From a virus, in the IMG/VR virus record IMGVR_UViG_3300032053_000016, positions 1 through 64,000 of that record: a stretch of 64,000 nt of DNA. One strand, written 5' to 3'. The position numbers and the translations under genes were made by a program. Shown here piece after piece: positions 1 to 12,802 of the stretch. How positions within the stretch are numbered: the stretch's first letter is position 1; each line of letters opens with the position of its first letter. The notes under the pieces are model-generated. The model had not been told where the DNA came from. It saw only the letters and a list, made by a program, of their open reading frames with translations, and made no database searches.

Positions 1-164
1 GCGATCATGTCGTTGTGCGTGTCGTCGCTGCCCCACTCGCCCTTGGCGTCCGACCGCATCCAATCCGCGTCGTCGCGGATCTCGCTGTACTCGCCGTCGC
101 GCGGGTCGGCGCTGACGTTCGGGCCCGGATCCTTGCGTCTCGCCTGCATCGACTCGGCCCTCAT
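1..164 (-). CDS. Hypothetical acidic protein (3' part cut by window edge)
   Basis: This reading frame starts at ATG 164 and runs off the left edge, giving 54 residues. The ATG overlaps the TGA of the upstream GxVW gene as ATGA, which supports translational coupling. The visible part is hydrophilic and rich in Asp, Arg and Glu, with no recognisable domain. Function unknown. Confidence 0.55.
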   Translation of the reverse strand, partial: MRAESMQARRKDPGPNVSADPRDGEYSEIRDDADWMRSDAKGEWGSDDTHNDMI

Positions 165-367
165 GCTATTTGAATCGCCGCCATGTCGAACCAGATGTCC
201 GAGATCCCACGCACGTGGCCGATCGGCTCTATCTGCTCGCCGACCGTGAGGTCGGTCTCGAGGATCAGCACGTTCCACTCGGACTGCCCGTGTCGGCTGA
301 GCAGCAGGTACACGCCTGTCTTTGGCTCTGTGCGCGCCCACACCTCACCCGCGGCTCGGGTTGTCAC
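161..367 (-). CDS. GxVW-family small protein
   Basis: The protein has 68 residues from GTG 367. AAGEVW lies at residues 5-10, followed by a strand-like VYLLL and then WNVLILETD, the usual beta-rich pattern of the family. The start is set by a GTGA overlap with the stop of the upstream gene. No catalytic motif is visible. Function unknown; a small SH3-like barrel is my guess for the fold. Confidence 0.75.
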   Translation of the reverse strand: MTTRAAGEVWARTEPKTGVYLLLSRHGQSEWNVLILETDLTVGEQIEPIGHVRGISDIWFDMAAIQIA

Positions 368-525
368 CTCTTGTCCTGCGTCTTTGGCTCGCACCACACC
401 GTCGCCTCCGGGGCGGGCGTGCCGTCTGTGGACATCACGGCCTTCCACGCCTCGAGCTGCGTGCGGAACGTGCCCATGCGCGCGATGTGTCGGCACCTAG
501 CGTACCAGTAGACTTCCTCGTCCAT
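364..525 (-). CDS. Hypothetical 53-aa protein
   Basis: This short gene starts at ATG 525 and ends in TGA at 364-366, overlapping the next gene as GTGA. A TAGGGT hexamer ends 6 nt before the ATG, the leaderless promoter pattern seen throughout the window. The N-terminus is aromatic and Cys/His-containing (WYARCRHIA), and a W-C pair lies near the C-terminus. It does not show the GxVW motif. Function unknown. Confidence 0.6.
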   Translation of the reverse strand: MDEEVYWYARCRHIARMGTFRTQLEAWKAVMSTDGTPAPEATVWCEPKTQDKR

Positions 526-531
526 GCGCTC

Positions 532-537
532 ACCCTA
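532..537 (-). promoter_or_regulatory. Leaderless-type -10 element TAGGGT
   Basis: TAGGGT followed by 6 nt and then ATG 525. Its TAG is also the stop codon of the upstream gene (535-858). No Shine-Dalgarno is present. Confidence 0.6.
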
Positions 538-858
538 CCGCTTCCTGGGAGGATACGCGCTCTTGGGATCCACGTGCGGCCAACGTTCGGCCCACTCCCC
601 CTTCACGCGCGACGGGACCTGGATCGGCGCGTGGAACCCGCACGTGCACGCGCACGCGTACAGGAACCCGGCGTCGCTGCGTATCTGCTGGTGGCAGGCG
701 AGCACGTTGGCGCGTTGAGCCTTGAGCTCGGCTCGCGCTTGGGACCGACGTCGACGCTCGGCCCACGTGGCGATCCGCGTGACCCACGTCGCGCCCCACC
801 GCTTGGGGGCGGGCCGATCGGGGGTGGAGGAGGGTTCGCGGTAGGGGTGGTGGGTCAC
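535..858 (-). CDS. Hypothetical basic protein with Cys cluster
   Basis: The protein has 107 residues from GTG 858, which overlaps the upstream TGA as GTGA. An Arg/Ala-rich helical stretch in the middle is followed by a CACTC cluster, preceded by a C-H pair (ACHQQ), which may bind zinc. The C-terminus is Pro/Lys/Arg rich. A longer in-frame extension is possible but is ruled out by the coupling overlap. Function unknown. Confidence 0.6.
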   Translation of the reverse strand: MTHHPYREPSSTPDRPAPKRWGATWVTRIATWAERRRRSQARAELKAQRANVLACHQQIRSDAGFLYACACTCGFHAPIQVPSRVKGEWAERWPHVDPKSAYPPRKR

Positions 859-1031
859 GTGGAGCTCTCGGGTGGCTGGATCACGATCACCGTCGCGCTG
901 CCGTCCTCGACGCACCGCGCGAGCGTCGCGAGCAGCGACCACTGCTCGTGGTGGCCGGCGATCTTGACGCTCGCGCGTCGGCGCTCGCGTTGCTGACGCC
1001 TGGCTTGCTTCCTACGTGTCCTGTTCTTCAT
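855..1031 (-). CDS. Hypothetical 58-aa basic protein
   Basis: The gene starts at ATG 1031 and ends in TGA at 855-857. The first 20 residues are almost all Arg, Lys and Gln (RTRRKQARRQQRERRRA), followed by a short globular-looking segment with a W and the strand-like SATVIVIQP. It could be a nucleic-acid-binding peptide, but that is inference from charge only. Confidence 0.55.
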   Translation of the reverse strand: MKNRTRRKQARRQQRERRRASVKIAGHHEQWSLLATLARCVEDGSATVIVIQPPESST

Positions 1032-1059
1032 GGCTTTTCGGGTGGCTTTCGGGTGGGGA

Positions 1060-1075
1060 GCGAACTGCGGTTCGC
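1060..1075. repeat. Perfect inverted repeat in a small intergenic gap
   Basis: GCGAAC and GTTCGC flank a 4-nt loop, giving a perfect 6-bp stem between the stop of the 1099-1365 gene and the next start at 1031. No T-run follows on either strand, so it is not a standard terminator. It could be an operator or an mRNA processing signal. Confidence 0.35.
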
Positions 1076-1098
1076 AGTGCGCGCATTTTTGAGAGAAT

Positions 1099-1365
1099 TT
1101 ACGGGAGAGGGGCGGCCGAAACCCGTGGAGAAGAGAACATGTAGAACTCGGCGTCGCCTGCCTCCGGACCCATCAAACGAGACTTGGAGCTGGCGACGTC
1201 CCACCGCTCCTCGCTCACCCACACACACCTCCACGTCTCCATGTCACGAGCTAGCCAAGAGGCGTTGATCAAGTTGACGTGGCGGGACTCAAGCATGACG
1301 ACGCGCCACCTCTGTCCTTCGCCGTCGTGCGTCCACCACACCTGCCCGGCCTGCGGACGCTTCAC
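1099..1365 (-). CDS. GxVW-family small protein
   Basis: The protein has 88 residues. AGQVWW sits at residues 6-11, followed by WRVVMLES and a second aromatic strand. GTG 1365 overlaps the stop of the next upstream gene as GTGA and so fixes the start. The C-terminal 20 residues are longer than usual and lack the R-[IL]-[AT] ending. Function unknown. Confidence 0.75.
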   Translation of the reverse strand: MKRPQAGQVWWTHDGEGQRWRVVMLESRHVNLINASWLARDMETWRCVWVSEERWDVASSKSRLMGPEAGDAEFYMFSSPRVSAAPLP

Positions 1366-1559
1366 TTGACACCTGTCGTGAACATCGACAGCCACACACT
1401 CGAGTACTCGCACACCTCGCCGGGCCGCTCCCAACCGTTGGCCATGTGGTGACCTTCGATCACCAGCGCGTGCCACTCTGTGTGGTCGTCTCTGGACTGC
1501 CGCACCAGCAGGTACATGCCAGGAGGGTTGACGTGCGCGCGTAGTTCGCCAGACTTCAC
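1362..1559 (-). CDS. GxVW-family small protein (degenerate motif)
   Basis: The protein has 65 residues from GTG 1559 (GTGA overlap upstream). The motif is reduced to SGELR, but the following strands MYLLVRQ and WHALVIEG match the family layout. Function unknown. Confidence 0.65.
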   Translation of the reverse strand: MKSGELRAHVNPPGMYLLVRQSRDDHTEWHALVIEGHHMANGWERPGEVCEYSSVWLSMFTTGVK

Positions 1560-1762
1560 GCCTCCAACCGCGTCCAGTGCTTGGCGAGGTCGACGCAGAT
1601 CCCAAGTTTGCCGACGTGTGGGTCGCCGTGCCGGTCGTCGTCTTGCTGAAGGATGAGCACTTCGGAGTAGCGTCGCGTGTCTTGCCCCCCGCCGAAACCG
1701 CAGTCTCGAACGACCACCACCACGCTGCGCTCGCAGATCCATGTCGTGCCAACTGTGGCCAT
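1556..1762 (-). CDS. GxVW-family-like small protein
   Basis: The protein has 68 residues from ATG 1762 (TGATG); a GTG one codon earlier would give GTGA. It begins ATVGTTWICE and then has a run of valines (SVVVVVRD) and SEVLILQQ, in the same strand order as its neighbours. It ends W-T-R-L-E-A. Function unknown. Confidence 0.6.
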   Translation of the reverse strand: MATVGTTWICERSVVVVVRDCGFGGGQDTRRYSEVLILQQDDDRHGDPHVGKLGICVDLAKHWTRLEA

Positions 1763-1953
1763 CACTCCACAAGCTCCATCGGGTGCTCGCAGAACTCGTG
1801 CGACGGCCACGAGAACGTGTACCCGGCCAGCGCGACGCCTGTGCGACCCTCGTGCAGATACATGGCCGTGACACGCTTGGGGGTGAGTCTCACGATCACA
1901 CGCCATGTGTCCGTCATCGGGTTGCGCCACACCTGACCCAGCTTGAGCGTCAT
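1762..1953 (-). CDS. GxVW-family small protein
   Basis: The protein has 63 residues from ATG 1953, which overlaps the upstream stop as ATGA; an ATG five codons earlier is rejected for that reason. LKLGQVWRN is followed by WRVIVRLTP and a final Glu-rich tail. Function unknown. Confidence 0.75.
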   Translation of the reverse strand: MTLKLGQVWRNPMTDTWRVIVRLTPKRVTAMYLHEGRTGVALAGYTFSWPSHEFCEHPMELVE

Positions 1954-2162
1954 TCTAACCTCATCCATGTCCCGTGACCTTTGTCAGGCCCACCCCAGTC
2001 ATCCATCTCGTTCGCGTTCACGAATTCACCTGTCTCAACCCTGAGAACTGTGTGACGTGTGTGTTCGCGCGATTGTGCGGATCGCACGACTATGTGAATC
2101 CCGTTCCAACCTACAAGGTCGATCCCTTCCCACACTTGGCCGACGCGGTCGACGAACTTCAT
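1950..2162 (-). CDS. GxVW-family small protein
   Basis: The protein has 70 residues with DRVGQVWEG at residues 5-13, then GIHIVVRS, VLRVETGEFV and the C-terminal W-M-R-L-E. ATGA overlap joins it to the upstream gene. It is one of the clearest family members. Function unknown. Confidence 0.8.
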   Translation of the reverse strand: MKFVDRVGQVWEGIDLVGWNGIHIVVRSAQSREHTRHTVLRVETGEFVNANEMDDWGGPDKGHGTWMRLE

Positions 2163-2644
2163 GTTTTCTCCTCAAAAGGCCACCACGCAGGTGCCGAGGC
2201 TCGTGGTGCCCAACGGGCGAACCGAGCCTTATCGCCGATGTAATAACGACGATATGCCTCAACAATGTCCAGATCTGCTGTCTGCGTCTTCCAAGGCTCT
2301 TTGATAGCTCGAGCGAATAACGTCAAACCTACGTCAGACAGATCAGGCGTTGTGTTAACACACTGCTCGATGATTTCCTGCGTGACGTGAACACGGTTGT
2401 AGCGACGTGTATACTCCTCACACAAGGCAAAAGCGTGGACAGCAAGCCACTTGTAGTTTGACAACGAGGAACGTACCCACTTGCTACAAGGGTGGTTGAA
2501 GTGTGTGTGCTTGTAACGGGTCGTATCAGGAGGCAACGCCGTGATCAACAGCTGTGCTGACTCGAGCACCATCTTGACCACATGTTTGTTGCATTGCTGT
2601 TGAGCGGCAGTAACAGGGTCAACGTCAAGAACAAAGACGTTCAT
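2159..2644 (-). CDS. Conserved phage protein with N-terminal FVLD-DP...CNKHVVKM motif
   Basis: The protein has 161 residues and begins MNVFVLDVDP, then AAQQQCNKHVVKMVLESAQL. I recognise this signature from many phage and some giant-virus proteins. Some databases label them pyrimidine-dimer DNA glycosylase, but most leave them unnamed, and I cannot confirm an enzymatic role. It lies inside the GxVW array with ATGA overlaps on both sides, so it is co-transcribed with it. A role in DNA repair is possible; function is treated as unknown. Confidence 0.6.
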   Translation of the reverse strand: MNVFVLDVDPVTAAQQQCNKHVVKMVLESAQLLITALPPDTTRYKHTHFNHPCSKWVRSSLSNYKWLAVHAFALCEEYTRRYNRVHVTQEIIEQCVNTTPDLSDVGLTLFARAIKEPWKTQTADLDIVEAYRRYYIGDKARFARWAPRASAPAWWPFEEKT

Positions 2645-2862
2645 CAGCCCAGCCTCTCACCGCGAATGTCGTCCATGTTCTCGCTCCAACGGTTCGGCGT
2701 GGCGTGAAAGATCTTGCCGGTCGCCAAGCACAGGCAGCGCCACAGTGATTCTTTTGAACACGTTGGCGTCCACAGCTCAAGCAGCACGCTCGGCTGCATC
2801 TCCTCGAAGTCAGGAGTGGCAAGCATCCACACCTGCCCGACCGCTGGCTCGTCGATCCTCAT
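2644..2862 (-). CDS. GxVW-family small protein
   Basis: The protein has 72 residues from ATG 2862 (ATGA overlap; the ATG at 2880 is rejected). EPAVGQVWML is followed by PSVLLELW, a CLCLATGKIF segment and NRWSE. This middle and C-terminal part closely resembles the gene at 4396-4626, so the two look like a recent duplicate pair. Confidence 0.78.
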   Translation of the reverse strand: MRIDEPAVGQVWMLATPDFEEMQPSVLLELWTPTCSKESLWRCLCLATGKIFHATPNRWSENMDDIRGERLG

Positions 2863-3065
2863 GCCACCCTCACCATCCATTGTTTGAGAAACTCTCGCAT
2901 GTGGATCGTGTACGTCTTGCCCGCGAGCTCACGTGGACGTAAACCGTCTTTAAGAAACCCATCGTCAAGGAACATCGCTGTCACGAACCCAAGCTCGTCA
3001 GGATCTGTGATGATCAAGCGCAAGACGCCTGACTCGGTGTGAGTGTACACTTGGTTGGCTCTCAC
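2859..3065 (-). CDS. GxVW-family-like small protein
   Basis: The protein has 68 residues from GTG 3065 (GTGA). The motif appears as RANQVYTHT, followed by VLRLIITD and VTAMFLDDG. It ends M-V-R-V-A, matching the family ending. Function unknown. Confidence 0.7.
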   Translation of the reverse strand: MRANQVYTHTESGVLRLIITDPDELGFVTAMFLDDGFLKDGLRPRELAGKTYTIHMREFLKQWMVRVA

Positions 3066-3289
3066 CACTGCTTTCGATTGCTCATCGATGTCCACGGCAC
3101 GTCTTTCTTCTCATAGACGTGTGTTAAGTCCCAACCTGCATCATCCCCTGGTTCTAAGCAGACGACAGGATGTCGCCAAAGCGCATCATCATCAGTTGGT
3201 GAATTGATTGGTTTCCCGATGATGAGAAACAGCCTGTTGTAAATGGTCCACACTTCGCCGGTTCTGTCAGGAGGAGGAGGAGACGTCAC
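3062..3289 (-). CDS. GxVW-family small protein
   Basis: The protein has 75 residues. A short Pro-rich N-terminus leads into DRTGEVWTIY, then LFLIIGKP and HPVVCLEPGD. ATG 3289 overlaps the upstream stop as ATGA. Function unknown. Confidence 0.75.
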   Translation of the reverse strand: MTSPPPPDRTGEVWTIYNRLFLIIGKPINSPTDDDALWRHPVVCLEPGDDAGWDLTHVYEKKDVPWTSMSNRKQW

Positions 3290-3555
3290 GTTGACGCTCG
3301 AAACAGCGCGAACGGCGAGTTGTTATCGATGTTTGTCCACCCTCGAAACGTTATCTCTGTAAGAGGAGGATCACCTACTTCCGCGCTGATCAGCATGCAT
3401 CGCACTTCATCGTCGTGGCTCAAGACATCGTCGAGAAGGACAAACAAGTAATCAGGCTTCTCCACAGCGAACGCGTCGCCCGCCCTGAGCCTGAGTGACC
3501 AGAACGTCGCGACGTGATCGCGCGTCCAACCTTCTCTAAGGGCGACCGTCGGCAT
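3286..3555 (-). CDS. GxVW-family-like small protein
   Basis: The protein has 89 residues from ATG 3555, overlapping the upstream gene by 20 nt because no later start codon precedes the motif. RAGDAFAV is followed by YLFVLLDD and CMLISAEVGD, the family strand order. Function unknown. Confidence 0.6.
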   Translation of the reverse strand: MPTVALREGWTRDHVATFWSLRLRAGDAFAVEKPDYLFVLLDDVLSHDDEVRCMLISAEVGDPPLTEITFRGWTNIDNNSPFALFRAST

Positions 3556-3759: not shown

Positions 3760-3981
3760 TCACGCGATCAGCTTAGACTGGCTGTGCCACAGCGCGTCCT
3801 CGCTGAACACCACAACGTCTCCTGACTTGTAGTACAAGTTGTCTTCTACGTTGAGGATCAACGACTCCATCTTGCGTCTCCCCTTGCGAGCCTTGCCCAC
3901 CCACCGCAGTGTCACGAAGATCGTGGGAACAACCGACCACCCTTGCCACTCGCGTGTTTGCCCAGGTGCAAGAGGAGTCAC
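3760..3981 (-). CDS. GxVW-family-like small protein
   Basis: The protein has 73 residues from GTG 3981 (GTGA). The N-terminus reads LAPGQTREW, then PTIFVTLRW, SLILNVED and SGDVVVF. The W of the motif is displaced, so membership rests on context and strand pattern. Function unknown. Confidence 0.6.
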   Translation of the reverse strand: MTPLAPGQTREWQGWSVVPTIFVTLRWVGKARKGRRKMESLILNVEDNLYYKSGDVVVFSEDALWHSQSKLIA

Positions 3982-4178
3982 AGCTTGCTGAACCCTCGGT
4001 TGTTGCAGTCGACGATGCAAACGTGACCTTCTAAGTCGGGCCTGAACGTTGACACGTGGATCAGGGCTTTAGCCTCGTTGTGCGCGCCTGGCTCCTCAAG
4101 GTACGTGAGCAGAACGTGACCCGAAGACTTGTTGCTCGTCTCCCACGTCGTCCCTGTCAACGGCTCACGCTTGCTCAC
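3978..4178 (-). CDS. GxVW-family small protein
   Basis: The protein has 66 residues from GTG 4178 (GTGA). LTGTTWET is followed by HVLLTYLEE and ALIHVSTF. Function unknown. Confidence 0.68.
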   Translation of the reverse strand: MSKREPLTGTTWETSNKSSGHVLLTYLEEPGAHNEAKALIHVSTFRPDLEGHVCIVDCNNRGFSKL

Positions 4179-4399
4179 GTGATCCTCACCCAGTTGGTGG
4201 GGTTGGGACGGTTATTTTCACTTGACGTCAACACGTCCTCTTTAGCGGTGTCGATCTGCATTCCTAGACGACCAGCCGCGTCATCGACGCGATAGATGAT
4301 GAACGTGTTGTGTATTCTGTCAAGCATGTTGTGCCAGCCTGTGATCACCTCGATCGAGCCGCCGATCTCCCACACTTGGCCGATCCTAGGGTTGATCAC
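4175..4399 (-). CDS. GxVW-family small protein
   Basis: The protein has 74 residues from GTG 4399 (GTGA). PRIGQVWEIG is followed by IEVITGW, TFIIYRVDDAAGRLG and the C-terminal NWVRIT. It has all four family segments. Function unknown. Confidence 0.8.
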   Translation of the reverse strand: MINPRIGQVWEIGGSIEVITGWHNMLDRIHNTFIIYRVDDAAGRLGMQIDTAKEDVLTSSENNRPNPTNWVRIT

Positions 4400-4626
4400 G
4401 CTAGCCTCACTCCAACAAGATGATCAGCTAAGTCATCAGGAAATCGTTCCACGTCCCGCCAACGGTTCAGTGAAGCGTTGAAGATCGACCCGTCTATCAA
4501 ACACAAACACACCCAGTAACGCTCTCCATTTGATGACACGCGACTCTCAAGCAACAGCGCTGGCTCAAGACGATGCTCGTGACTCGTTAGTTGCCACACT
4601 TGGCCGGTTTCCAGCTCACACAACAC
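4396..4626 (-). CDS. GxVW-family small protein
   Basis: The protein has 76 residues from GTG 4626, with a TTG one codon later as the alternative. The overlap with the upstream stop is 11 nt. ETGQVWQL, PALLLES, VCLCLIDGSIF and NRWRD follow in order, and the ending is VRLA. The stretch CLCLIDGSIFNASLNRW mirrors the 2644-2862 gene. Confidence 0.75.
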   Translation of the reverse strand: MLCELETGQVWQLTSHEHRLEPALLLESRVSSNGERYWVCLCLIDGSIFNASLNRWRDVERFPDDLADHLVGVRLA

Positions 4627-4828
4627 GGTTGCACCGCTGAAACATCCAAGCTTCGTCGATCGACGTCGTGATGCTGAAATCTTGTGATTGAGAGTCAAGG
4701 ATCAGTGCGTCCCACCACGGGTATGTTTCGTTGTGACGTTCAAGTAACACAAATATGAAATTATATCTTCGGTGTGTGCCCGAGAAAAGGAACACGTCGC
4801 CAGGCATCAAGTACCATTCGCCGCTCAT
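4616..4828 (-). CDS. GxVW-family-like small protein
   Basis: The protein has 70 residues from ATG 4828 (ATGA). The motif is MPGDVFLFSG, in which W is replaced by F, then NFIFVLLERH and WWDALILDS. Function unknown. Confidence 0.7.
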   Translation of the reverse strand: MSGEWYLMPGDVFLFSGTHRRYNFIFVLLERHNETYPWWDALILDSQSQDFSITTSIDEAWMFQRCNRVV

Positions 4829-5049
4829 GCCGTCCCCAGCACGATGAGCTCAGAGTGGGTGAACAACGGCTCGTTTAAACGGTAATTTTTGTGTACGCCG
4901 ACGTGAGCACCTGCTGTCAACTTCTCGACGTAGAGGAACAGCACGGTCGCGTGGAACTGTGTGCACTTTAAGACAACGTAGATGATGTGCCCGCATTCGT
5001 CGTGAACCCCGTCGCCGTACTCACGTACTTCACCGACGTCGAACCTCAC
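4825..5049 (-). CDS. GxVW-family-like small protein
   Basis: The protein has 74 residues from GTG 5049 (GTGA; the longer in-frame extension is rejected). DVGEVREYG is followed by HIIYVVLKC and ATVLFLYVE. Function unknown. Confidence 0.68.
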   Translation of the reverse strand: MRFDVGEVREYGDGVHDECGHIIYVVLKCTQFHATVLFLYVEKLTAGAHVGVHKNYRLNEPLFTHSELIVLGTA

Positions 5050-5273
5050 ACGAGCACCGTTGTTTCTTCCACAAGCCACGAGTTGAAAGCGTCGACGATC
5101 TTCCCGGCCGGAGGGATGTACGCCTCCTGCATGCCTGTCACCTCCAATGTGAGCACAGACCACCCGACGCCGACAGATGCCAATACGAGATAGACGCTGT
5201 CGCCGGTGGCACCCACATGGATGCGAGTCTGCCCTGGTTCCACGGGCACTTGATCACGCGGCTGGATCATCAC
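5046..5273 (-). CDS. GxVW-family-like small protein
   Basis: The protein has 75 residues from GTG 5273 (GTGA; the next codon is ATG). VEPGQTRIHV is followed by SVYLVLASV and WSVLTLEVTG. Function unknown. Confidence 0.65.
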   Translation of the reverse strand: MMIQPRDQVPVEPGQTRIHVGATGDSVYLVLASVGVGWSVLTLEVTGMQEAYIPPAGKIVDAFNSWLVEETTVLV

Positions 5274-5623: not shown

Positions 5624-5629
5624 ACTTTA
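5624..5629 (-). promoter_or_regulatory. Leaderless-type -10 element TAAAGT
   Basis: TAAAGT, 6 nt, GTG 5617. It overlaps the stop region of the 5627-5896 gene. Confidence 0.6.
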
Positions 5630-5896
5630 CCACACCCTTCTCTGACAGTCGCTCTCGGTAAGCGCGGTCGACTCCATGAACCAGATGGCGTGCTCGTCGT
5701 GCTCAAGGATCTCGCCAGCCTTGTACGGAGCGTACGTTGAGTGAAGAACGAACGAACGTCCTATCCGTCCAGTGGCGCTGGGACCTGAGCTTCCGCTGTG
5801 TTCTACGACGAGGTATATCGACTCTTCGTTACCTGATGAGTACACGCGTATCGCACCTGTGAAGCAGGTGCCCTGGGGTGGGATGTTGAAGCTCAC
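5627..5896 (-). CDS. GxVW-family-like small protein
   Basis: The protein has 89 residues from GTG 5896 (GTGA). PPQGTCFTGAIRVY is followed by SIYLVVEHSG and RSFVLHSTY. The Trp of the motif is absent; the layout and context support membership. Function unknown. Confidence 0.6.
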   Translation of the reverse strand: MSFNIPPQGTCFTGAIRVYSSGNEESIYLVVEHSGSSGPSATGRIGRSFVLHSTYAPYKAGEILEHDEHAIWFMESTALTESDCQRRVW

Positions 5897-6320: not shown

Positions 6321-7544
6321 TCATCCCTTGACGCACAAAACTTGCTTAAGAACGTGTACGATCTCCACCAGCTCGGCTTGGGCTGCCATCACCGCGTCAA
6401 TGCTCTTGTAAGCGCCTGGAGTCTCGTCGACCACGCTCGCGTCCTTGCGACACTCGACACCTTTGGTGGCTTCAACGTGATCCTCAACCGTGAACGTTTT
6501 CTTCGCCTCCGTGCGTGACATGCGACGGCCGGCGCCGTGCGAGCAGGAACACAGGCTGTCGCGGTTGCCCTTGCCTCGCACGATGAACGACTTGGCGCCC
6601 ATCGATCCTGGGATGATGCCGAGCTCGCCAAGCTGAGCGGAGACCGCTCCCTTACGTGTGACCCACAGCTTGCGACCGAAGTGCCTCTCGCTTGAGATGT
6701 AGTTGTGGTGGCAGTTGACAGCCTCCACCTCGGCGTTCGCGTTCCAAGTCACGCCGAGCTCCTTGACGACGGCGTCGAGCGTGGCGTCCATCATGACCTC
6801 GCGGTTCAAGCGAGCGAAGTCCTGGCCAAACCTGACAGCCTGGATGTACGCCGTGTAGTGTTGACTGCCCTCCGGAAGGTACGAGAGATCCTTGTCGGGC
6901 AAGTTGATGTGCCAACGTTCCATCTCCTTCTTCGCAAGCGCGATGAAGTGCGAACCGACACGGTTGCCGACCCCGCGTGAGCCGGAGTGAAGCATCAGCC
7001 ACACGTTCTGATCCTCGTCGCCGCACACCTCGATGAAGTGGTTCCCTGACCCGAGCGTGCCGAGGTGGCCGATGGTCGTTCCTCGGTCGAGGCCGGGGTA
7101 AAGTGCAACAAGCTTCTTGTACTCCGCGTCGAGCGTAGACCAACGGTCGCGAACGTTCTGCGGCACGTCTCCCCATGCGCCACGGTCGTTGCGACCGCCT
7201 TGATCTGTGCGTCCGTGCGGGACAGCCTTCTCGATGACGGAGCGTAGGCTCGCGAGGCTGTCTGGAAGCTGTGACAGCTTGAGGTCAAGCTTGCGCGCCA
7301 TCATTCCACAGCCGATGTCCACACCCACGGCCGCGGGGATGATCACCCGATCTGTGGGGATGACGCTGCCGACCGTCGCGCCGAAGCCTTTGTGCACGTC
7401 CGGCATGACTGCGAGGTGCGGCCACACGAACGGCAACGTGGCGACGTTGACGAGCTGCTCCTCAGCCGGCTCCTCAAGCTCAACGCCGTCGACCCACGCC
7501 TTGATGGGCACGCGTTGCCCCTCTCTCCCTGTGATGACCTTCAT
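6321..7544 (-). CDS. rtcB: RtcB-type RNA-splicing ligase
   Basis: The protein has 407 residues, the usual RtcB length. RtcB joins a 2',3'-cyclic or 3'-phosphate RNA end to a 5'-OH end using GTP and Mn2+. Conserved pieces are visible in order: GVDIGCGM (74-81, metal-binding Cys79), LGSGNHF (164-170), NCHHNY (277-282) and the guanylylated histidine in SHGAGR (His336). The ATG at 7544 is preceded by TAAGAT at 6-nt spacing. Downstream lie GxVW genes in the same direction. In a phage it would reseal tRNAs cut by host anticodon nucleases, which is inference. Confidence 0.95.
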   Translation of the reverse strand: MKVITGREGQRVPIKAWVDGVELEEPAEEQLVNVATLPFVWPHLAVMPDVHKGFGATVGSVIPTDRVIIPAAVGVDIGCGMMARKLDLKLSQLPDSLASLRSVIEKAVPHGRTDQGGRNDRGAWGDVPQNVRDRWSTLDAEYKKLVALYPGLDRGTTIGHLGTLGSGNHFIEVCGDEDQNVWLMLHSGSRGVGNRVGSHFIALAKKEMERWHINLPDKDLSYLPEGSQHYTAYIQAVRFGQDFARLNREVMMDATLDAVVKELGVTWNANAEVEAVNCHHNYISSERHFGRKLWVTRKGAVSAQLGELGIIPGSMGAKSFIVRGKGNRDSLCSCSHGAGRRMSRTEAKKTFTVEDHVEATKGVECRKDASVVDETPGAYKSIDAVMAAQAELVEIVHVLKQVLCVKG

Positions 7545-7562: not shown

Positions 7563-7769
7563 TCATCGCAAAATGCATGCTCTCGGCAGGTACACGGCGT
7601 CGTCATATAACTCTCCAGACTCCTGCTCGACGGCAAGCATGCCGTCGTCAAGGTACATGACGTCGACGTACAGGTAGCCTGATATCGAGCTGAACGGTTC
7701 GGAGAGCACGACGAAGCTGTCTGCGTTGCCCATCGGGTAGAGCACGACGTCACCAAGTTTGAGACCCAC
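7563..7769 (-). CDS. GxVW-family-like small protein
   Basis: The protein has 68 residues from GTG 7769, chosen because AGAGAGG sits 5 nt upstream as a ribosome binding site; this is one of the few genes here with a clear Shine-Dalgarno. LKLGDVVLYP is followed by SFVVLSE and MYLDDG. Function unknown. Confidence 0.65.
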   Translation of the reverse strand: MGLKLGDVVLYPMGNADSFVVLSEPFSSISGYLYVDVMYLDDGMLAVEQESGELYDDAVYLPRACILR

Positions 7770-7779
7770 GTTCACCTCT

Positions 7780-7986
7780 CTAGATGGCGACCGTTTGGGT
7801 CGTAAGCCAATCCTCACTCCACCACGTCGTGGATCCGACTACAAACATGTTGCTATACCACTTTGTGGAGTGAATGACGATGGCCTCCCAGCCAGTGTTC
7901 TCACGATCGTGACCGACCACAAGGATGAACATCTCACCGTTGCCAGAGCTCGCTGCGGCTCGCACCTGCCCGATCTCAGGCTTCAC
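7780..7986 (-). CDS. GxVW-family-like small protein
   Basis: The protein has 68 residues from GTG 7986 (GTGA). PEIGQVRAA is followed by MFILVVGHD and WEAIVIHST. The Trp of the motif is replaced by Arg. Function unknown. Confidence 0.68.
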   Translation of the reverse strand: MKPEIGQVRAAASSGNGEMFILVVGHDRENTGWEAIVIHSTKWYSNMFVVGSTTWWSEDWLTTQTVAI

Positions 7987-8186
7987 AGCCTCTCCCAGCG
8001 TTCAACATCGTGCAGCTCCATCCACGGCATGTTGCCAGTGTGAAACACGAACATGTGTGCTATTGGAAACGGGTTCTGCCCTATGATGACACCGATGAAG
8101 AGCCAGTAGACTGGTGGATCGTCTGGGTTGTCAGATTTGTGCGATGGGAACACGACGACGTCTCCAGGCTTCAACGGCGGGTTCAC
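7983..8186 (-). CDS. GxVW-family-like small protein
   Basis: The protein has 67 residues from GTG 8186 (GTGA). LKPGDVVVFPS is followed by YWLFIGVIIG and HMFVFHTG. It ends in W-E-R-L. Function unknown. Confidence 0.68.
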   Translation of the reverse strand: MNPPLKPGDVVVFPSHKSDNPDDPPVYWLFIGVIIGQNPFPIAHMFVFHTGNMPWMELHDVERWERL

Positions 8187-8401
8187 ACCAACCTCTTGAT
8201 GTTCTTGGTCTCGCACGATCCGTCGTTTACAAATAACTCTTCAAGACACGGGAAGAGCAGCGTTGAGAACGGGCGATCGTCGGCGACGAGGTACACGATT
8301 TGATGCACCCACCCCCATTCACCGATTCTAGACTCCATCACAAGTGCGATGTAGCCCGGGGTGAATTCCCACACCTGTCCAACACGGTTCACAGTCAGCA
8401 T
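8183..8401 (-). CDS. GxVW-family small protein
   Basis: The protein has 72 residues from ATG 8401. NRVGQVWEF is followed by YIALVMES and QIVYLVADD. It is the first gene of the leftward arm, divergent from the gene at 8481. A longer in-frame version starting at 8467 cannot be excluded. Confidence 0.7.
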   Translation of the reverse strand: MLTVNRVGQVWEFTPGYIALVMESRIGEWGWVHQIVYLVADDRPFSTLLFPCLEELFVNDGSCETKNIKRLV

Positions 8402-8427
8402 GATGACGTGGTTCACACACGACGATG

Positions 8428-8446
8428 ACTCTCGATACACGAGAGT
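8428..8446. promoter_or_regulatory. Palindrome between divergent GxVW arms
   Basis: ACTCTCG and CGAGAGT form a perfect 7-bp inverted repeat around a 5-nt spacer, midway between the divergent starts at 8401 and 8481. There is no T-run. Its position and symmetry suggest an operator serving both arms; this is inference. Confidence 0.45.
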
Positions 8447-8468
8447 TCTGTGTTGGCGTTTACCCATG

Positions 8469-8474
8469 TACATT
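8469..8474 (+). promoter_or_regulatory. Leaderless-type -10 element TACATT
   Basis: TACATT, 6 nt, ATG 8481. It selects the ATG at 8481 over the one at 8466. Confidence 0.55.
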
Positions 8475-8480
8475 CATGAC

Positions 8481-8750
8481 ATGCACGCTTCCGTTCCTGA
8501 TCGACGTGGTGAAACCTGGGAGGAGAAACCACGCCCAGAACACCAGTGGGTGCCGGGACACGACGAACGGGTCGAACGTTTCGTTGTCGTCGGTGAGCCG
8601 ACGCTCGTTGAAGGCCATGATCCGTCTAGAGTGGCGTCATGGTGTCACCAGGTGCTCTGGATGGATGACATCCCATCGCTTCCAGGCGACGGCGAAGACA
8701 AGATCAACGAGAACTACTTCACCAACGGCATGTACGTGAGGCTCGCGTGA
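8481..8750 (+). CDS. GxVW-family small protein
   Basis: The protein has 89 residues from ATG 8481, or 94 from ATG 8466. DRRGETWEEK is followed by RFVVVGEP and CHQVLWMDD, ending YVRLA. First gene of the rightward arm. The stop overlaps the next start as GTGA. Confidence 0.75.
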   Translation: MHASVPDRRGETWEEKPRPEHQWVPGHDERVERFVVVGEPTLVEGHDPSRVASWCHQVLWMDDIPSLPGDGEDKINENYFTNGMYVRLA

Positions 8751-8965
8751 CCGGTAAGGCTGGCGAGGTGTGGATCCTAGGCGACGGAAGTGACCCTAGT
8801 CTCGACGGCAGCGAGTGGTGGTACGTGCTGATCGAGCTGTGTGAAGGTTACCAAAACAAACATGTGTGGTGGGCGATGCGGCTGAACGACATCTCGGCTG
8901 ATCGACCGGCAGGCACGCTCGGGAGACTCACGGTTGGATACAAGCATTGTCGGAGGTTCGTTTGA
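8747..8965 (+). CDS. GxVW-family small protein
   Basis: The protein has 72 residues from GTG 8747. KAGEVWILG is followed by WWYVLIELCEG and WWAMRLND. A strong member of the family. Function unknown. Confidence 0.8.
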   Translation: MTGKAGEVWILGDGSDPSLDGSEWWYVLIELCEGYQNKHVWWAMRLNDISADRPAGTLGRLTVGYKHCRRFV

Positions 8966-9192
8966 ACACGCGTGTCGGTGAGGTGTGGGAGATCAAAAGC
9001 TTCTTGAACGGGGAGCGTGTGGTCGTCGTCATGGAGTCGAAGCTGACTAGCCTTCGTCACGATGCCGGGTTCGCCATGCTGCACAAGATCTTGCAGATCA
9101 CGGGTAAGAAGGAGGGGCGTCTGCTCGTGTGGACGGAGTACCCAACCACTTTGTGGGAAGAGGCAGACAACATGAAACGTCTGGACGCTTGA
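8962..9192 (+). CDS. GxVW-family small protein (TTG start)
   Basis: The protein has 76 residues from TTG 8962. GGAGG at 8952-8956 lies 5 nt upstream and TTGA overlaps the previous stop. RVGEVWEIK is followed by VVVVMES, and the ending is MKRLDA. Function unknown. Confidence 0.76.
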   Translation: MNTRVGEVWEIKSFLNGERVVVVMESKLTSLRHDAGFAMLHKILQITGKKEGRLLVWTEYPTTLWEEADNMKRLDA

Positions 9193-9193
9193 G

Positions 9194-9481
9194 ATGAGGA
9201 ATTACATGTTCGTGCAACCTGTCACGCCGCATCCAAACGACCAGCAGATCCGCCAGTCAAAGGATCGCACGTTTCAGGTTTGGGAGGTTTACGCAGAAGG
9301 CCTGATCCAGTTCGTGACCGGCGCGCCAGAGGTCACGATGTACGCGCCAAACGGCGAACCGTTTCAGTTCTCTCACCCTTGCTACTGCATCGACGACTGC
9401 GGCGAACGACACGAGTGGCCTCTTATTGAGACCGTTGATCGCCCTCTAGAGGTGAAGGAAATTTACAAGAGGTTAGCTTGA
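9194..9481 (+). CDS. GxVW-family small protein
   Basis: The protein has 95 residues from ATG 9194, two nucleotides after the previous stop. The motif is RTFQVWEVY, then LIQFVTGAP and HPCYCIDDCGE. The ending YKRLA matches the family. Cysteines in CYCIDDC are unusual for it. Confidence 0.7.
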   Translation: MRNYMFVQPVTPHPNDQQIRQSKDRTFQVWEVYAEGLIQFVTGAPEVTMYAPNGEPFQFSHPCYCIDDCGERHEWPLIETVDRPLEVKEIYKRLA

Positions 9482-9738
9482 AACACACACGCGCCGGTGA
9501 GATGTGGTTCGAGTGGGACGGCTTTGACAACACCCAGTGGCACGAGGTGTTGATCTTGGAGACAAAGCGTGTCGCCTTCGATCAGCAGTGGCACATGTGC
9601 ATCAACCTCGTGACTGGCGAGGTTTACCAGACGGTCGAGATGATGAACGCGCTGTGGGAGGACACGCCGACGGAACGCGTAATCGACACGAACCCTTGCC
9701 GTTTCAACGCCACGCTTCATCGCAAGAGGATCTTGTGA
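9478..9738 (+). CDS. GxVW-family small protein (TTG start)
   Basis: The protein has 86 residues from TTG 9478, with AAGAGG upstream and a TTGA overlap. TRAGEMWFEW is followed by WHEVLILET and CINLVTGEVYQ. Function unknown. Confidence 0.78.
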   Translation: MKHTRAGEMWFEWDGFDNTQWHEVLILETKRVAFDQQWHMCINLVTGEVYQTVEMMNALWEDTPTERVIDTNPCRFNATLHRKRIL

Positions 9739-10055
9739 GAAGGAATTTCATACTCACACCAGGGATCGCTTGGTTGCGTCGTTTGGCAAAAGTGACCTGT
9801 CGCAAGGGTCAAGTTTGGACTCGCCCCGACCTCACGGTGTTGATCGTTGTTGGAGAGCCTGAGCCATCTGACGAGTGGGATCGTCACGGTCGATTCATTG
9901 AGCACGTCTCGAATGTGCTCAAAACTCTCAGCCAACACGGTTGGTGTCATCCGACTCTTTGCCTTGAGACAGGAGAACGTTGTCACGTCAACGAGCGGTT
10001 CTTCGTTGAGGGCGAGCAAAAATTGATCACCAACACTTGGACGAGGATCGCATGA
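9735..10055 (+). CDS. GxVW-family protein with N-terminal extension
   Basis: The protein has 106 residues from GTG 9735 (GTGA; AAGAGG 5 nt upstream). It is longer than its neighbours because 28 residues precede CRKGQVWTR. Then come LTVLIVVGEP, TLCLETGERC and the ending WTRIA. Confidence 0.75.
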   Translation: MRRNFILTPGIAWLRRLAKVTCRKGQVWTRPDLTVLIVVGEPEPSDEWDRHGRFIEHVSNVLKTLSQHGWCHPTLCLETGERCHVNERFFVEGEQKLITNTWTRIA

Positions 10056-10261
10056 AACAAAAATCCAAGTATGATCGCGTTGGGCAGGTGTGGTGGAGTG
10101 GCAAGCTGATCGTTCTCGTGACCGAGACTGTCATGTCGAAAGATCGACGCAGCATGCTTCACATTTGTTACTTGCTTGAGGGAGGCGGATTCATACACCT
10201 TCACGAGAAGAAGGTGAAGCGTTGGGAATGGACTCCAGCGTGGCAAGAGCGAATCACGTAG
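10052..10261 (+). CDS. GxVW-family small protein
   Basis: The protein has 69 residues from ATG 10052 (ATGA). DRVGQVWWSG is followed by LIVLVTET and ICYLLEGGGF, ending QERIT. Last gene of the rightward GxVW arm before the RNA ligase. Confidence 0.78.
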   Translation: MKQKSKYDRVGQVWWSGKLIVLVTETVMSKDRRSMLHICYLLEGGGFIHLHEKKVKRWEWTPAWQERIT

Positions 10262-10298: not shown

Positions 10299-11381
10299 AT
10301 GTCAGAATTTCACGTGAACGTGGTCCGTCTCACGAACGTCCAGAAGCACCCCAACGCTGACTCGCTGTACATCGCGAAGATCCATGGTGGTTACCCGATC
10401 ATCTTCAAGGGAAAGGAGTTCGGAGGAGCCTTCGAGGAGGGCGATCTCGCCGTCTACATCCCTGTTGACAGCATGGTGCCCGCGACGAAGGAGTACGCTT
10501 GGCTGTCCCCGCAGGTGGAGATCCTTCTGCCTGGCGGAGAGAAGCAGATGGTCGACGCGGACGTCCCACGCGACAAGGATCGACGCGTGCGTGCCAAGCG
10601 ACTGCGTGGAGTCTTCTCGATGGGCATGCTCGGCGTCGCGCCGGAAGGCGCTGTTGAAGGCCAGGACGTGGCCGAGCTCATGGGCATCACCAAGTACGAG
10701 GAGGCCGAGGATGTCATCAACGCTTCGCGCACCGACGGGTTTCAGGTGCCGGCGCCGCGTCTCAAGGCGATGCCGAGCGTCTACGACATCGAAGGCCTGC
10801 GTCGCTACACCAGCGCCTTCAAGGTTGGCGAGGAGTACGTTGTCACCGAGAAGCTTCACGGCCAGAACGCGCGCTTCGTCCACGACGGCGAGAGACTTCA
10901 CGTCGGCTCACGCACGCGCTGGCTGACCACCGCGGAGCGTCACACGTGGGCAGACGCGGCAACGCGTTACGTGCTCGCCGAGAAACTCAAGCAAGCGCCG
11001 GGCATCGTCTTCTTCGGCGAGACCTACGGCAACAACACCGACATGTCGTACGGCGTGACGCGTGCCAAGACCGGCGACGAGGTCCGCTTCTTCGACGCGT
11101 GGAACTCGGAAGACGGGTCGTTCTTTGATCATGACGTCTTCCTCAACATGTGCAAGTCGTTAGACCTACAGGTCGTCCCCGAGCTGGCGCGTGGCACGTG
11201 GGCAGAAGGTGAGTTCGAGAAGCTTGCGCCGCTTGCAGAAGGCAAGACGACTCTCGGAGGCGGACACGTGCGCGAGGGTTTCGTCATCAAGCCGTTGAAG
11301 GAACGTTTCTGTGAGGAGATCGGCGGGCGGCTAATATTGAAACTACATGGAGCGGATTTCCTCCTTCGAAAAGAAAAGTAA
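10299..11381 (+). CDS. RNA ligase, DRB0094/Rnl5-like family
   Basis: The protein has 360 residues. It belongs to the nucleotidyltransferase ligases that seal a 3'-OH to a 5'-phosphate in RNA using ATP. Residues 1-130 form an OB-like N-terminal domain of the kind found in the Deinococcus DRB0094 family. The AMP-accepting lysine is Lys185 in TEKLHGQN (motif I). FFGETYG (238-244) is motif III, EGFVIKP (326-332) motif IV and LILKLHG near 345 motif V. The start has TAGACT at 6-nt spacing. With RtcB, Thg1 and Pth2 it forms an RNA-repair set. Confidence 0.9.
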   Translation: MSEFHVNVVRLTNVQKHPNADSLYIAKIHGGYPIIFKGKEFGGAFEEGDLAVYIPVDSMVPATKEYAWLSPQVEILLPGGEKQMVDADVPRDKDRRVRAKRLRGVFSMGMLGVAPEGAVEGQDVAELMGITKYEEAEDVINASRTDGFQVPAPRLKAMPSVYDIEGLRRYTSAFKVGEEYVVTEKLHGQNARFVHDGERLHVGSRTRWLTTAERHTWADAATRYVLAEKLKQAPGIVFFGETYGNNTDMSYGVTRAKTGDEVRFFDAWNSEDGSFFDHDVFLNMCKSLDLQVVPELARGTWAEGEFEKLAPLAEGKTTLGGGHVREGFVIKPLKERFCEEIGGRLILKLHGADFLLRKEK

Positions 11382-11404
11382 GAAGTTTTTCGGGAATCTG
11401 ACAC

Positions 11405-11647
11405 GTGAAGCAAGGGTGGAAGCCACGTGTCTTCGAAACTGGCTGCGTGTACCGCACGGTGCTGAACGCGTACTCAACGACCGACAGTCGTGAATGCATC
11501 TACCTCGTGTTAGGGGCTGACGAACGTGACGCTAACTGGTGGGAAGGGTACGCTGTGAACTTCACGTACCTTGACCTCCTCACAGGGCACGTCGACGAGT
11601 TCCATCGCGATTCTTACTTCGCGTGCTCGGCTGAGCCGTTGTGGTGA
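11405..11647 (+). CDS. GxVW-family-like small protein
   Basis: The protein has 80 residues from GTG 11405, 23 nt after the RNA ligase. The motif is ETGCVYRTV, followed by CIYLVLGAD, WWEGYAVNF and YLDLLTGHV. Function unknown. Confidence 0.65.
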   Translation: MKQGWKPRVFETGCVYRTVLNAYSTTDSRECIYLVLGADERDANWWEGYAVNFTYLDLLTGHVDEFHRDSYFACSAEPLW

Positions 11648-11886
11648 AGTACCTCTACCACCTCCCGTGTGGGACGGTGATCCACCAACTTGAGGATGAC
11701 GACGCAGACATCTCGTGCGATTTCACCGCGCGTCGAGGTGACCTTGCCGTTGTGATCGCTCACACAGTCAACGGGTGGTGCGAGACAGTGTTCCTATCCT
11801 TGACGCAAGGAGAGATCTACCATGTGTGTTACGGTTACGAGAGCAACTACGCTGCGATGTGTTCGGTCGAGGTGTACAAACCGTGA
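11644..11886 (+). CDS. GxVW-family-like small protein
   Basis: The protein has 80 residues from GTG 11644 (GTGA). PCGTVIHQL is followed by DLAVVIAHT and TVFLSLTQGEIY. A distant member at best. It converges on the AlkB-like gene with only 17 nt between stops. Confidence 0.58.
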   Translation: MKYLYHLPCGTVIHQLEDDDADISCDFTARRGDLAVVIAHTVNGWCETVFLSLTQGEIYHVCYGYESNYAAMCSVEVYKP

Positions 11887-11903
11887 GCTCCTCGACAACA
11901 GGC

Positions 11904-12521
11904 TCAAAGCGATGTTCTCTCACTTGTTGAATGCTTCCGGAAGGTCACGGAAAGTCTGACGCCGGTGGATTCGGGTTCCTCCGCGATGGAGTGGTGCCAC
12001 TTGGAGTCGCAGTCACCCTCCATGATCATGAGGTCACCATGTTCGAGTCGAACGTCGACGAGTCCTTCTTTCAGTCGCTTCCCCTTCACGTCAAGCGGGT
12101 GGAACGTCATCGTGCGAGCCGCGCCGAACGACACGCTGACGATCCTTGGCTTGTCTCCAAGTTGTGGGATGTACAACCCATCCCGATGTGGGTAGAGGCT
12201 TCCGGTTGGACCGTAGACGTTCACGACCCCGCAGTTTGGCATCCACAACAGGTCAGCCTCCACCATGTTCCTCAGACGTCTCAGAGCGGGCGTCCATGAG
12301 GAGACCGTCTTGACTGTGTCCTTGTAGGAGTAGGTGACGCCTTCGTCTCCCCACCGACCCATTCTGTGCCCACCGTCACGGTACGGCTTTCCATGCCCGT
12401 ACTTGAGCTGAACGGACAGGCCTTTCCGCGTCTCTTCGGTGAGATCCTTGAAGTACTGATCGCTGTCCGCGAGGTTGAGCCACCTCTTCAACACACGAAC
12501 CTGTTCAGGGATGACGTTCAT
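11904..12521 (-). CDS. AlkB-like 2-oxoglutarate/Fe(II) dioxygenase
   Basis: The protein has 205 residues. AlkB enzymes oxidatively demethylate alkylated bases in DNA or RNA. The iron ligands are His112 and Asp114 in NVYGPTGSLYPHRD, with His176 or His177 as the third. RLSVTFR (Arg189, Arg195) matches the 2-oxoglutarate-binding RxNxTxR with Asn replaced by Ser. The ATG is preceded by TAACGT at 6-nt spacing. It may reverse alkylation damage or act on RNA alongside the neighbouring ligases. Confidence 0.88.
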   Translation of the reverse strand: MNVIPEQVRVLKRWLNLADSDQYFKDLTEETRKGLSVQLKYGHGKPYRDGGHRMGRWGDEGVTYSYKDTVKTVSSWTPALRRLRNMVEADLLWMPNCGVVNVYGPTGSLYPHRDGLYIPQLGDKPRIVSVSFGAARTMTFHPLDVKGKRLKEGLVDVRLEHGDLMIMEGDCDSKWHHSIAEEPESTGVRLSVTFRKHSTSERTSL

Positions 12522-12527
12522 CCGACC

Positions 12528-12533
12528 ACGTTA
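12528..12533 (-). promoter_or_regulatory. Leaderless-type -10 element TAACGT
   Basis: TAACGT, 6 nt, ATG 12521. Confidence 0.6.
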
Positions 12534-12541
12534 CCACTCTT

Positions 12542-12802
12542 CTAAGAGTCTAAGAACTCTTGAAATCCAGACAATCGGCGTCCTTTGATCCAGGGTTTGA
12601 ATGTTCCATGGAACGAGTCTGTGTTGTACACGCGTTCCTGCCCCAACAGATCCTCAAACCGAGGATCGTCAACATGCCCTTCCAACATGACGATGATGGT
12701 CTTCACGCCGTACGTGTGTTCATCGGGTGGAACGACGTATTCAACAACGAACCCATCGTAGACCACCCAACGTCGCCAGAGCGTTCCGATGTCAGGGCTC
12801 AC
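12542..12802 (-). CDS. GxVW-family-like small protein
   Basis: The protein has 86 residues from GTG 12802 (GTGA). PDIGTLWRRW is followed by VVEYVVPP and TIIVMLEGH. Function unknown. Confidence 0.65.
   Translation of the reverse strand: MSPDIGTLWRRWVVYDGFVVEYVVPPDEHTYGVKTIIVMLEGHVDDPRFEDLLGQERVYNTDSFHGTFKPWIKGRRLSGFQEFLDS

What the first reader, a model, noticed from the sequence alone, without database searches (positions are those of the whole stretch)
1..12802. Very large array of GxVW small paralogues, an apparently undescribed phage family
About 30 short genes in the first 12.8 kb, and further copies at 15.2-15.6, 20.2 and 49.0 kb, share one plan: G-[EQDS]-x-W near residue 8, then a hydrophobic strand ending in E/D (VLILE, LVMES), a middle L-x-x-G-x segment and a C-terminal W-x-R-[ILV]-[AT]. 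They are almost all 62-106 aa, chained by ATGA/GTGA/TTGA overlaps in two divergent arms. So many divergent copies of one small domain side by side suggest repeated duplication and diversification, as seen for decoy, inhibitor or anti-defence sets. The fold may be an SH3-like barrel, superficially like the first strands of MazF/PemK; that is inference only.
Basis: partly seen in the sequence, partly recalled or inferred. Interest (0 to 1): 0.88.

Follow-up and report, generated by a model that had tools for sequence, protein, structure and literature searches.

The report
Large array of small SH3-like phage genes
A large bacterial virus carries about 39 very different copies of one tiny barrel-shaped protein, most of them side by side; they match no named protein family, and they look like a diversified kit of binding proteins used against the host, although that use is not shown.

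Summary
The window lies in a 107.4-kb fragment of a large tailed phage. Its first 12.8 kb hold about 35 small genes (62-106 aa) of one plan, nearly all in two divergent arms; four more lie at 15.3-15.6, 20.2 and 49.0 kb. Sequence profiles link about 20 members directly; the more divergent ones rest on weaker sequence signal plus a predicted fold. Two AlphaFold models from disjoint member sets give the same five-strand SH3-like barrel (pLDDT 84 and 82.5). No Pfam, PHROGs, NCBIfam, PADLOC or PDB profile and no annotated phage record matches. The only outside relative found is a coupled gene pair in another phage contig. Twenty-two of 35 gene junctions are 4-nt stop/start overlaps, and the conserved C-terminal Arg is mostly coded AGG where a gene follows, so it probably doubles as the next gene's ribosome site. 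Core residues are conserved; loop lengths vary widely. RNA-repair genes (RtcB, RNA ligase, Thg1) lie in or beside the array. Best reading: a lineage-specific expansion of small binding scaffolds for host takeover or counter-defence. Family and fold are well supported; function is inference. MazF membership is not supported. Precedent: about 35 zinc ribbons in Bacillus phage G.

The parts
161..367 (-). family member m161 (GEVW; start uncertain, 367-496)
   Evidence: out-of-sample profile rank 14 of 1547
1099..1365 (-). family member m1099 (AGQVWW)
   Evidence: profile; E 0.0026 leave-one-out
1362..1559 (-). divergent member m1362
   Evidence: plan and 4-nt overlap; member of alignment A4
1556..1762 (-). 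family member m1556 (VGTTW)
   Evidence: alignment; ATG at 1762
1762..1953 (-). family member m1762 (LGQVWR)
   Evidence: ATGA overlap with the 1950 gene; weak leave-one-out (E 0.66)
1950..2162 (-). core member m1950 (RVGQVWE)
   Evidence: leave-one-out E 7e-6
2644..2862 (-). core member m2644 (VGQVWM), modelled as SH3-like barrel
2859..3065 (-). divergent member m2859 (NQVY ... QWMVRVA)
3062..3289 (-). family member m3062 (TGEVWT)
   Evidence: rank 19
3286..3555 (-). divergent member m3286
3760..3981 (-). divergent member m3760 (PGQTRE)
3978..4178 (-). divergent member m3978 (TGTTWE)
4175..4399 (-). core member m4175 (IGQVWE)
   Evidence: leave-one-out E 0.039
4396..4626 (-). core member m4396 (TGQVWQ); closest pair with m2644
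4616..4828 (-). divergent member m4616 (PGDVFL), modelled as the same barrel
   Evidence: pLDDT 82.5, pTM 0.69
4825..5049 (-). divergent member m4825 (VGEVRE)
5046..5270 (-). divergent member m5046 (PGQTRI)
5270..5491 (-). divergent member m5270 (start uncertain)
   Evidence: weakest assignment
5627..5896 (-). divergent member m5627
5893..6105 (-). core member m5893 (RGDVWE)
   Evidence: recruited in round 1; weak in leave-one-out (E 10)
6102..6302 (-). family member m6102 (IGSVWE)
   Evidence: weak out of sample (E 0.47)
6321..7544 (-). RtcB RNA ligase inside the left arm (not a family member)
   Evidence: PF01139 E 1.7e-124
7563..7775 (-). divergent member m7563 (LGDVVL)
7780..7986 (-). divergent member m7780 (IGQVRA)
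7983..8186 (-). divergent member m7983 (PGDVVV)
8183..8401 (-). core member m8183 (VGQVWE), first gene of left arm
   Evidence: leave-one-out E 0.005
8402..8480 (.). 79-bp divergent intergenic region with a 7-bp perfect inverted repeat at 8428-8446; putative promoter/operator
   Evidence: repeat only weakly above chance (0.84 such repeats per kb genome-wide)
8481..8750 (+). family member m8355 (RGETWE), first gene of right arm
   Evidence: E 1.3 out of sample, just below the top 20; alignment
8747..8965 (+). core member m8747 (AGEVWI)
   Evidence: leave-one-out E 0.0013
8962..9192 (+). core member m8947 (VGEVWE)
   Evidence: leave-one-out E 1.9e-4
9194..9481 (+). family member m9194 (TFQVWE)
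   Evidence: rank 17
9478..9738 (+). core member m9478 (AGEMWF)
   Evidence: leave-one-out E 5.6e-6
9735..10055 (+). family member m9750 (KGQVWT)
   Evidence: rank 16; start uncertain
10052..10261 (+). core member m10037 (VGQVWW)
   Evidence: leave-one-out E 1.1e-4
10299..11381 (+). RNA ligase between right-arm genes (not a family member)
   Evidence: phrog_968 E 9.6e-36
11405..11647 (+). divergent member m11405
11644..11886 (+). divergent member m11641 (RGDLAV)
   Evidence: weak
12542..12802 (-). divergent member m12542 (IGTLWR)
   Evidence: weak
15437..15625 (-). family member m15437 (VGSVWE)
   Evidence: rank 13; leave-one-out E 0.021
15201..15440 (-). member m15321 (VGQVWW ... WVGRRIA) interrupted by an in-frame TGA; approximate limits
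20226..20414 (-). core member m20226 (PGELWE)
   Evidence: E 9e-4 out of sample
49034..49294 (-). family member m49034 (TGESWE)
   Evidence: rank 20 (E 0.87 out of sample)

Best explanation
The array is one lineage-specific, birth-and-death gene family: about 39 copies of a single-domain SH3-like barrel of 62-106 residues. Each copy keeps the barrel core (G-x-V-W in strand 1, a hydrophobic strand often ending in E, an L-x-L...G turn, and a C-terminal R-[ILV] strand; looser in the divergent copies) and varies its loops and surface charge. Most genes form two back-to-back polycistronic arms that should be read by coupled translation: most starts overlap the previous stop by 4 nt, and the conserved C-terminal Arg codon is mostly AGG, so that it doubles as the Shine-Dalgarno site of the next gene. 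Inferred, not shown: the copies are made early in infection, and each binds a different host or defence protein through its loops, so that the set works as a panel of counter-defence or host-takeover binders beside the RNA-repair genes.
For: Family. Real genes. Fold: AlphaFold pLDDT 84 / pTM 0.71 for the core set and pLDDT 82.5 / pTM 0.69 for a disjoint divergent set, with the same strand order; profile-profile E 6e-4 between the sets. Scaffold pattern: invariant G, W and near-invariant G, R, V in the barrel, while the b1-b2 loop runs 3-24 residues, b3-b4 5-25 and b4-b5 0-29; net charge runs from -10 to +6. Coupling: 22 of 35 junctions overlap by 4 nt; the Arg at position -3 is AGG in 14 of 19 against 15 of 155 Arg codons elsewhere in the array (binomial P 5e-11), and in 14 of 16 coupled against 0 of 3 uncoupled members (Fisher P 0.01). 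Birth and death: the stop-interrupted copy and scattered copies. Context: RtcB, RNA ligase and Thg1, RNA-repair genes that a jumbo-phage survey ties to host RNase effectors (PMC7824862). Precedent for an SH3-like counter-defence protein: Nip of Bacillus phage phi3T (PMC11984713).
Against: No expression, binding or phenotype data. The host is unknown. No member resembles a known inhibitor. About 16 members are linked to the core mainly by plan, overlap and one predicted model. SH3-like barrels are common in phages, so fold alone tells little about function. The second fold was found with confidence in only two of five model runs (mean pLDDT 65-69 in the other three).
Confidence: 0.45

Rival explanations
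1. Members share one conserved ligand site. The conserved W of strand 1, the H/W of strand 3 and the C-terminal R could form an aromatic/basic pocket, as in Tudor-type SH3-like domains, that reads a modified residue or nucleotide; the variable loops only tune specificity.
For: W12 is invariant, position 41 is H in 10 and W in 7 of the aligned members, and R70 is in 18 of 21; the best solved-structure matches are extended Tudor domains.
Against: Foldseek E-values are only 0.02-0.6 in the listed matches and SH3-like folds are generic; no coordinates could be inspected here to see whether the residues meet on one surface; most of the divergent members lack the W.
Confidence: 0.13
2. They are nucleic-acid-binding accessory domains (KOW/SH3-like) that serve the RNA-repair enzymes lying between them or phage transcription and translation.
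For: RtcB, RNA ligase, Thg1 and AlkB-like genes are interleaved or adjacent; PDB matches include eIF5A, EF-P and ribosome entries.
Against: 63% have pI below 6 and the median is 5.4; net charge runs from -10 to +6, unlike a set of nucleic-acid binders.
Confidence: 0.13
3. They are a MazF/PemK-derived set: toxins, inactive decoys or antitoxin-like partners.
For: The first two strands read like MazF (RGxVW ... VLIIQ; compare the MazF-like gene in L181).
Against: Profile comparison to that MazF-like protein covers only 30 columns with probability 5.7%; no Pfam PemK match; no MazF among the 50 best PDB matches listed.
Confidence: 0.05
4. Only the core of about 20 genes is one family; the other 15 or so are unrelated small early phage genes that look alike because of a shared C-terminal ribosome-site sequence and loose pattern reading.
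For: Cross-group similarity is small (mean z 0.45; 5.7% of pairs above 3 against 2% in the control); the C-terminal Arg is partly set by the Shine-Dalgarno overlap.
Against: The divergent set, aligned on its own, folds to the same barrel and matches the core profile at E 6e-4.
Confidence: 0.19
5. They are virion-associated or structural small domains.
For: SH3- and Ig-like domains do occur in virions (general knowledge).
Against: They sit in divergent coupled operons with RNA-repair genes, away from the tail and baseplate genes at about 28-46 kb.
Confidence: 0.05

Closest known systems
Lineage-specific expansion of ~35 zinc-ribbon proteins in Bacillus phage G (PMC7824862)
   Same: A giant phage with about 35 copies of one tiny domain of unproven function
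   Different: Zinc ribbon, not an SH3-like barrel; the paper suggests transcription factors or structural DNA-binding proteins
Phage SH3-like small proteins with predicted structures, including DUF1653 proteins and phage G Gp399 (BFVD matches)
   Same: SH3-like barrel of similar size; best viral structural neighbours (E 0.007-0.02, TM by query 0.62-0.69)
   Different: No sequence match of any scanned member to DUF1653 or any other Pfam model; no array of this size found in the papers I could search
MazF/PemK toxins
   Same: First two strands and the G-x-V-W start
   Different: No profile match, likeness limited to 30 columns
Small SH3-fold protein encoded beside the DNA polymerase of some jumbo phages (PMC7824862, e.g. 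AAL82950.1)
   Same: Small SH3-fold protein of a jumbo phage, described there as related to nucleic-acid-binding toxins
   Different: One gene in a replication neighbourhood, not an array; sequence relation not tested here
Nip of Bacillus phage phi3T (PMC11984713)
   Same: Phage counter-defence protein predicted to hold SH3-like domains
   Different: 279 aa, two SH3-like domains and an HU-like dimerization domain; single gene, no sequence relation tested
Coupled pair in IMGVR_UViG_3300029893_000044 (locus L182)
   Same: Two adjacent small genes with KVGQIY...CERIA and RIGDVW...LVRV, joined by the same AGG/GTGA coupling
   Different: Only two copies seen, about 500 bp from a contig end; profile scores are marginal (E 0.05-1.6)

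Membership tests
MazF/PemK (PF02452) | Significant match to the PemK profile | tested here: not met
   37 members scanned against Pfam, none matched
MazF/PemK (PF02452) | Full PemK fold beyond the first two strands | tested here: not met
   Profile comparison aligns 30 columns only, probability 5.7%; members are five-strand barrels of about 70 aa
MazF/PemK (PF02452) | RNase activity | not testable with these tools
   needs an assay
DUF1653 (PF07866) | Significant match to the DUF1653 profile | tested here: not met
   no match at E up to 5 in the core set or up to 1 in the divergent set
DUF1653 (PF07866) | SH3-like barrel fold | tested here: met
   DUF1653 proteins are among the best BFVD matches, TM by query 0.62-0.68
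SH3-like barrel fold class | Five strands with a short turn or helix before the last strand | tested here: met
   strands 11-15, 22-31, 40-45, 51-54, 68-70 and 12-16, 23-32, 38-45, 51-58, 67-69 with a helix at 59-65; predicted, not solved
Any named family in Pfam, PHROGs, NCBIfam, PADLOC or PDB chains | Profile or sequence match | tested here: not met
   (NCBIfam, PADLOC and PDB with core-set members only)
Known anti-defence or anti-CRISPR proteins | Inhibition of a host defence system | not testable with these tools
   no relatives of known function found; PADLOC covers defence systems rather than inhibitors

The most novel reading that the evidence does not exclude
The phage keeps a modular, rapidly diversifying panel of about 39 loop-variable barrel binders, each aimed at a different host defence or takeover target, produced from two divergent promoters as translation-coupled cassettes whose own C-terminal codon supplies the next cassette's ribosome site, so that cassettes can be duplicated, swapped or lost singly.
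Probability: 0.25. Interest if true: 0.85.

Novelty: new variant of a known kind. Interest (0 to 1): 0.62.

Why it matters
Expansions of one tiny domain to dozens of copies are rarely documented in phages. Here the family matches no named family, the fold is predicted, and the copies sit with RNA-repair genes. If the members bind different host proteins, the array is a ready-made library of inhibitors of host defence or physiology. The overlap of a protein motif with the next gene's ribosome site also suggests how such an array can grow by single cassettes without breaking expression.

Tried and rejected
Named-family searches of all kinds: nothing. tblastn of 11 concatenated members and of one member in 50,697 phage records: none or chance. 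Whole-record profile searches of 50 Thg1-bearing and 50 mostly RtcB-bearing phage contigs: nothing except one 14-bit match with an internal stop in G088, taken as chance; the own genome, searched with the same profile, gave 19 hits, though the profile was built from it. Flanks of about 160 related-gene loci, 2.8 Mb: nothing. A DNA pattern for the coupled motif (5 hits in this window, 0 in shuffles) found 14 viral and 85 genome stretches with one hit each, about chance level by my own estimate; only L182 was convincing. MazF: rejected. The inverted repeat between the arms is only weakly above chance and similar repeats are not enriched in the window. Sigma-70 promoter scan: no excess. Recent DNA-level duplicates: none seen; repeats among members are short and centre on the GxVW codons. 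Literature searches for such arrays gave no direct match.
Full report
Setting. The window is bases 1-64000 of a 107,401-base virus record of the IMG/VR kind. The remaining 43 kb were read too. The record carries baseplate genes (baseplate relatives in a 484-kb uncultured phage and in Microcystis phage Mel-JY01), many glycosyltransferase-like and sugar-nucleotide genes (my reading of the ORFs), a DNA methyltransferase and a sigma factor. It is a fragment of a large tailed phage. The array touches base 1, so it may continue.

Is the family real? From six seed members a profile grew to 11 without taking in anything outside the candidate list, and ranks 12-20 of 1,547 six-frame ORFs were nine further candidates that had not been used in training. 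The candidate list was drawn up by eye from the GxVW plan, so this is not fully blind, but location was not part of the score, and all 20 lie in 0.1-20.4 kb or at 49.0 kb. Leave-one-out scores are good for 11 of 14 seeds and poor for 1762, 5893 and 6102. Pairwise alignment z-scores exceed a control of non-overlapping segments of the same phage in every group, most in the core. Codon-position composition is that of the phage's long genes, and 38 of 38 members have GC3 above GC2.

How many? I count 35 in the first 12.8 kb and four outside: 15437-15625; a copy just downstream of it broken by an in-frame TGA but with the GQVWW...WVGRRIA plan on its two sides; 20226-20414; and 49034-49294. About 20 are secure by sequence. 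Sixteen divergent ones rest on the shared plan, the chained overlaps, a profile-profile E of 6e-4 to the core and one structure model.

Fold. AlphaFold with 21 core members as alignment gave mean pLDDT 84.0 and pTM 0.71 for m2644: five strands with a short turn before the last. With 16 divergent members, none shared with the first set, it gave pLDDT 82.5 and pTM 0.69 for m4616 and the same strand order; only two of its five models were that good. The best solved matches are extended Tudor domains, eIF5A and similar SH3-like barrels, with E no better than 0.02; the best viral ones for the core model include phage G Gp399 and DUF1653 proteins, and the divergent model again finds small unnamed phage proteins. 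So the fold is an SH3-like barrel, a common phage fold, and it does not name a function.

Conservation. In the core alignment the invariant residues are G9 and W12 (m2644 numbering) besides the start, then G49, R70 and V11; strands keep their length better than loops (b1-b2 3-24, b3-b4 5-25, b4-b5 0-29 residues). Column entropy differs little between strands and loops (2.37 against 2.55 bits), so the contrast lies in loop length more than in substitution. The proteins are rich in W (4.2% against 1.5% in the phage's long genes), mostly acidic, and differ widely in charge. That is what one expects of a scaffold with varied surfaces, and it speaks against a uniform nucleic-acid-binding role. This step is inference.

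Coupling. Twenty-two of 35 junctions in the two arms overlap by 4 nt (ATGA, GTGA or TTGA), three by 1 nt. The C-terminal R-[ILV]-[AT] motif ends in many coupled genes as GAGG-NTN-RCN-TGA: the AGG lies a few bases before the next start and would act as its Shine-Dalgarno site. The Arg at -3 is AGG in 14 of 19 members against 15 of 155 Arg codons elsewhere in the array (P 5e-11), and in 14 of 16 coupled against 0 of 3 uncoupled members (P 0.01). The Arg itself remains in uncoupled members with CGA or CGT, so it is also a protein motif.

Context. RtcB sits inside the left arm, an RNA ligase between right-arm genes, and an AlkB-like gene and a tRNA-His guanylyltransferase gene follow. A survey of jumbo phages treats RtcB and ATP-grasp RNA ligases as repair of RNA cut by RNase effectors (PMC7824862). 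This makes a host-conflict region plausible; it does not show what the small proteins do.

Relatives. No library, PDB chain or annotated phage record matched. Scans of 100 other phage contigs with the profile gave nothing credible, while the own genome gave 19 hits. A DNA pattern of the coupled motif found one credible outside pair, in a 33-kb phage contig, close to its end. Close relatives of the phage itself are scarce: fragments at 98-100% and one at 75% identity in a structural gene, in which the profile found no member. So the expansion is, on present data, confined to this phage lineage; the sampling is thin.

Function. The best reading is a lineage-specific expansion of small binding scaffolds for takeover or counter-defence. 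Shown by sequence: family (core), gene reality, layout, codon bias at the overlap. Predicted: fold. Inferred: early expression, use of the AGG as ribosome site, different targets, anti-defence role. Precedents are an expansion of about 35 zinc ribbons in Bacillus phage G (PMC7824862) and an SH3-like-domain counter-defence protein, Nip (PMC11984713). Novelty is therefore a new family and a new variant of a known kind of event, not a new kind of system.

Noticed in passing
window 15201-15440 (-): Family copy with an in-frame TGA in the middle but the plan kept on both sides (GQVWW ... WVGRRIA): a decaying copy, or a sequencing error.
   Followed up: partly
window 8428-8446: Perfect 7-bp inverted repeat ACTCTCG-ATACA-CGAGAGT in the 79-bp region between the two divergent arms; possible operator, only weakly above chance.
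   Followed up: partly
window 17058-18164 (+): Phage-encoded sigma factor (phrog_351, E 7e-45) next to a DNA methyltransferase gene; it might read the array promoters.
   Followed up: no
window 13463-14242 (-): tRNA-His guanylyltransferase (Thg1) gene; 172 viral stretches encode relatives, many in large phage contigs.
   Followed up: partly
window 53175-53253 (-): ARAGORN reports a tRNA-like gene with a four-base anticodon (aata).
   Followed up: no
L182 9343-9774 (-) and 13342-13817 (-): The other phage contig with the coupled pair also has a protein starting AFDVGQILYVV; its array, if any, would run off the contig end.
   Followed up: partly
L181 7604-7642 (+): The coupled-motif pattern also hit a plain MazF-like gene (KRGQVWYADLG...RPVLIIQ) joined to an upstream ORF by the same overlap.
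   Followed up: no
BFVD matches A0A516M7xx and A0A516LBxx/LC30: Several structural matches carry neighbouring accession numbers, which may mean another virus with several SH3-like paralogues; names were not available.
   Followed up: no
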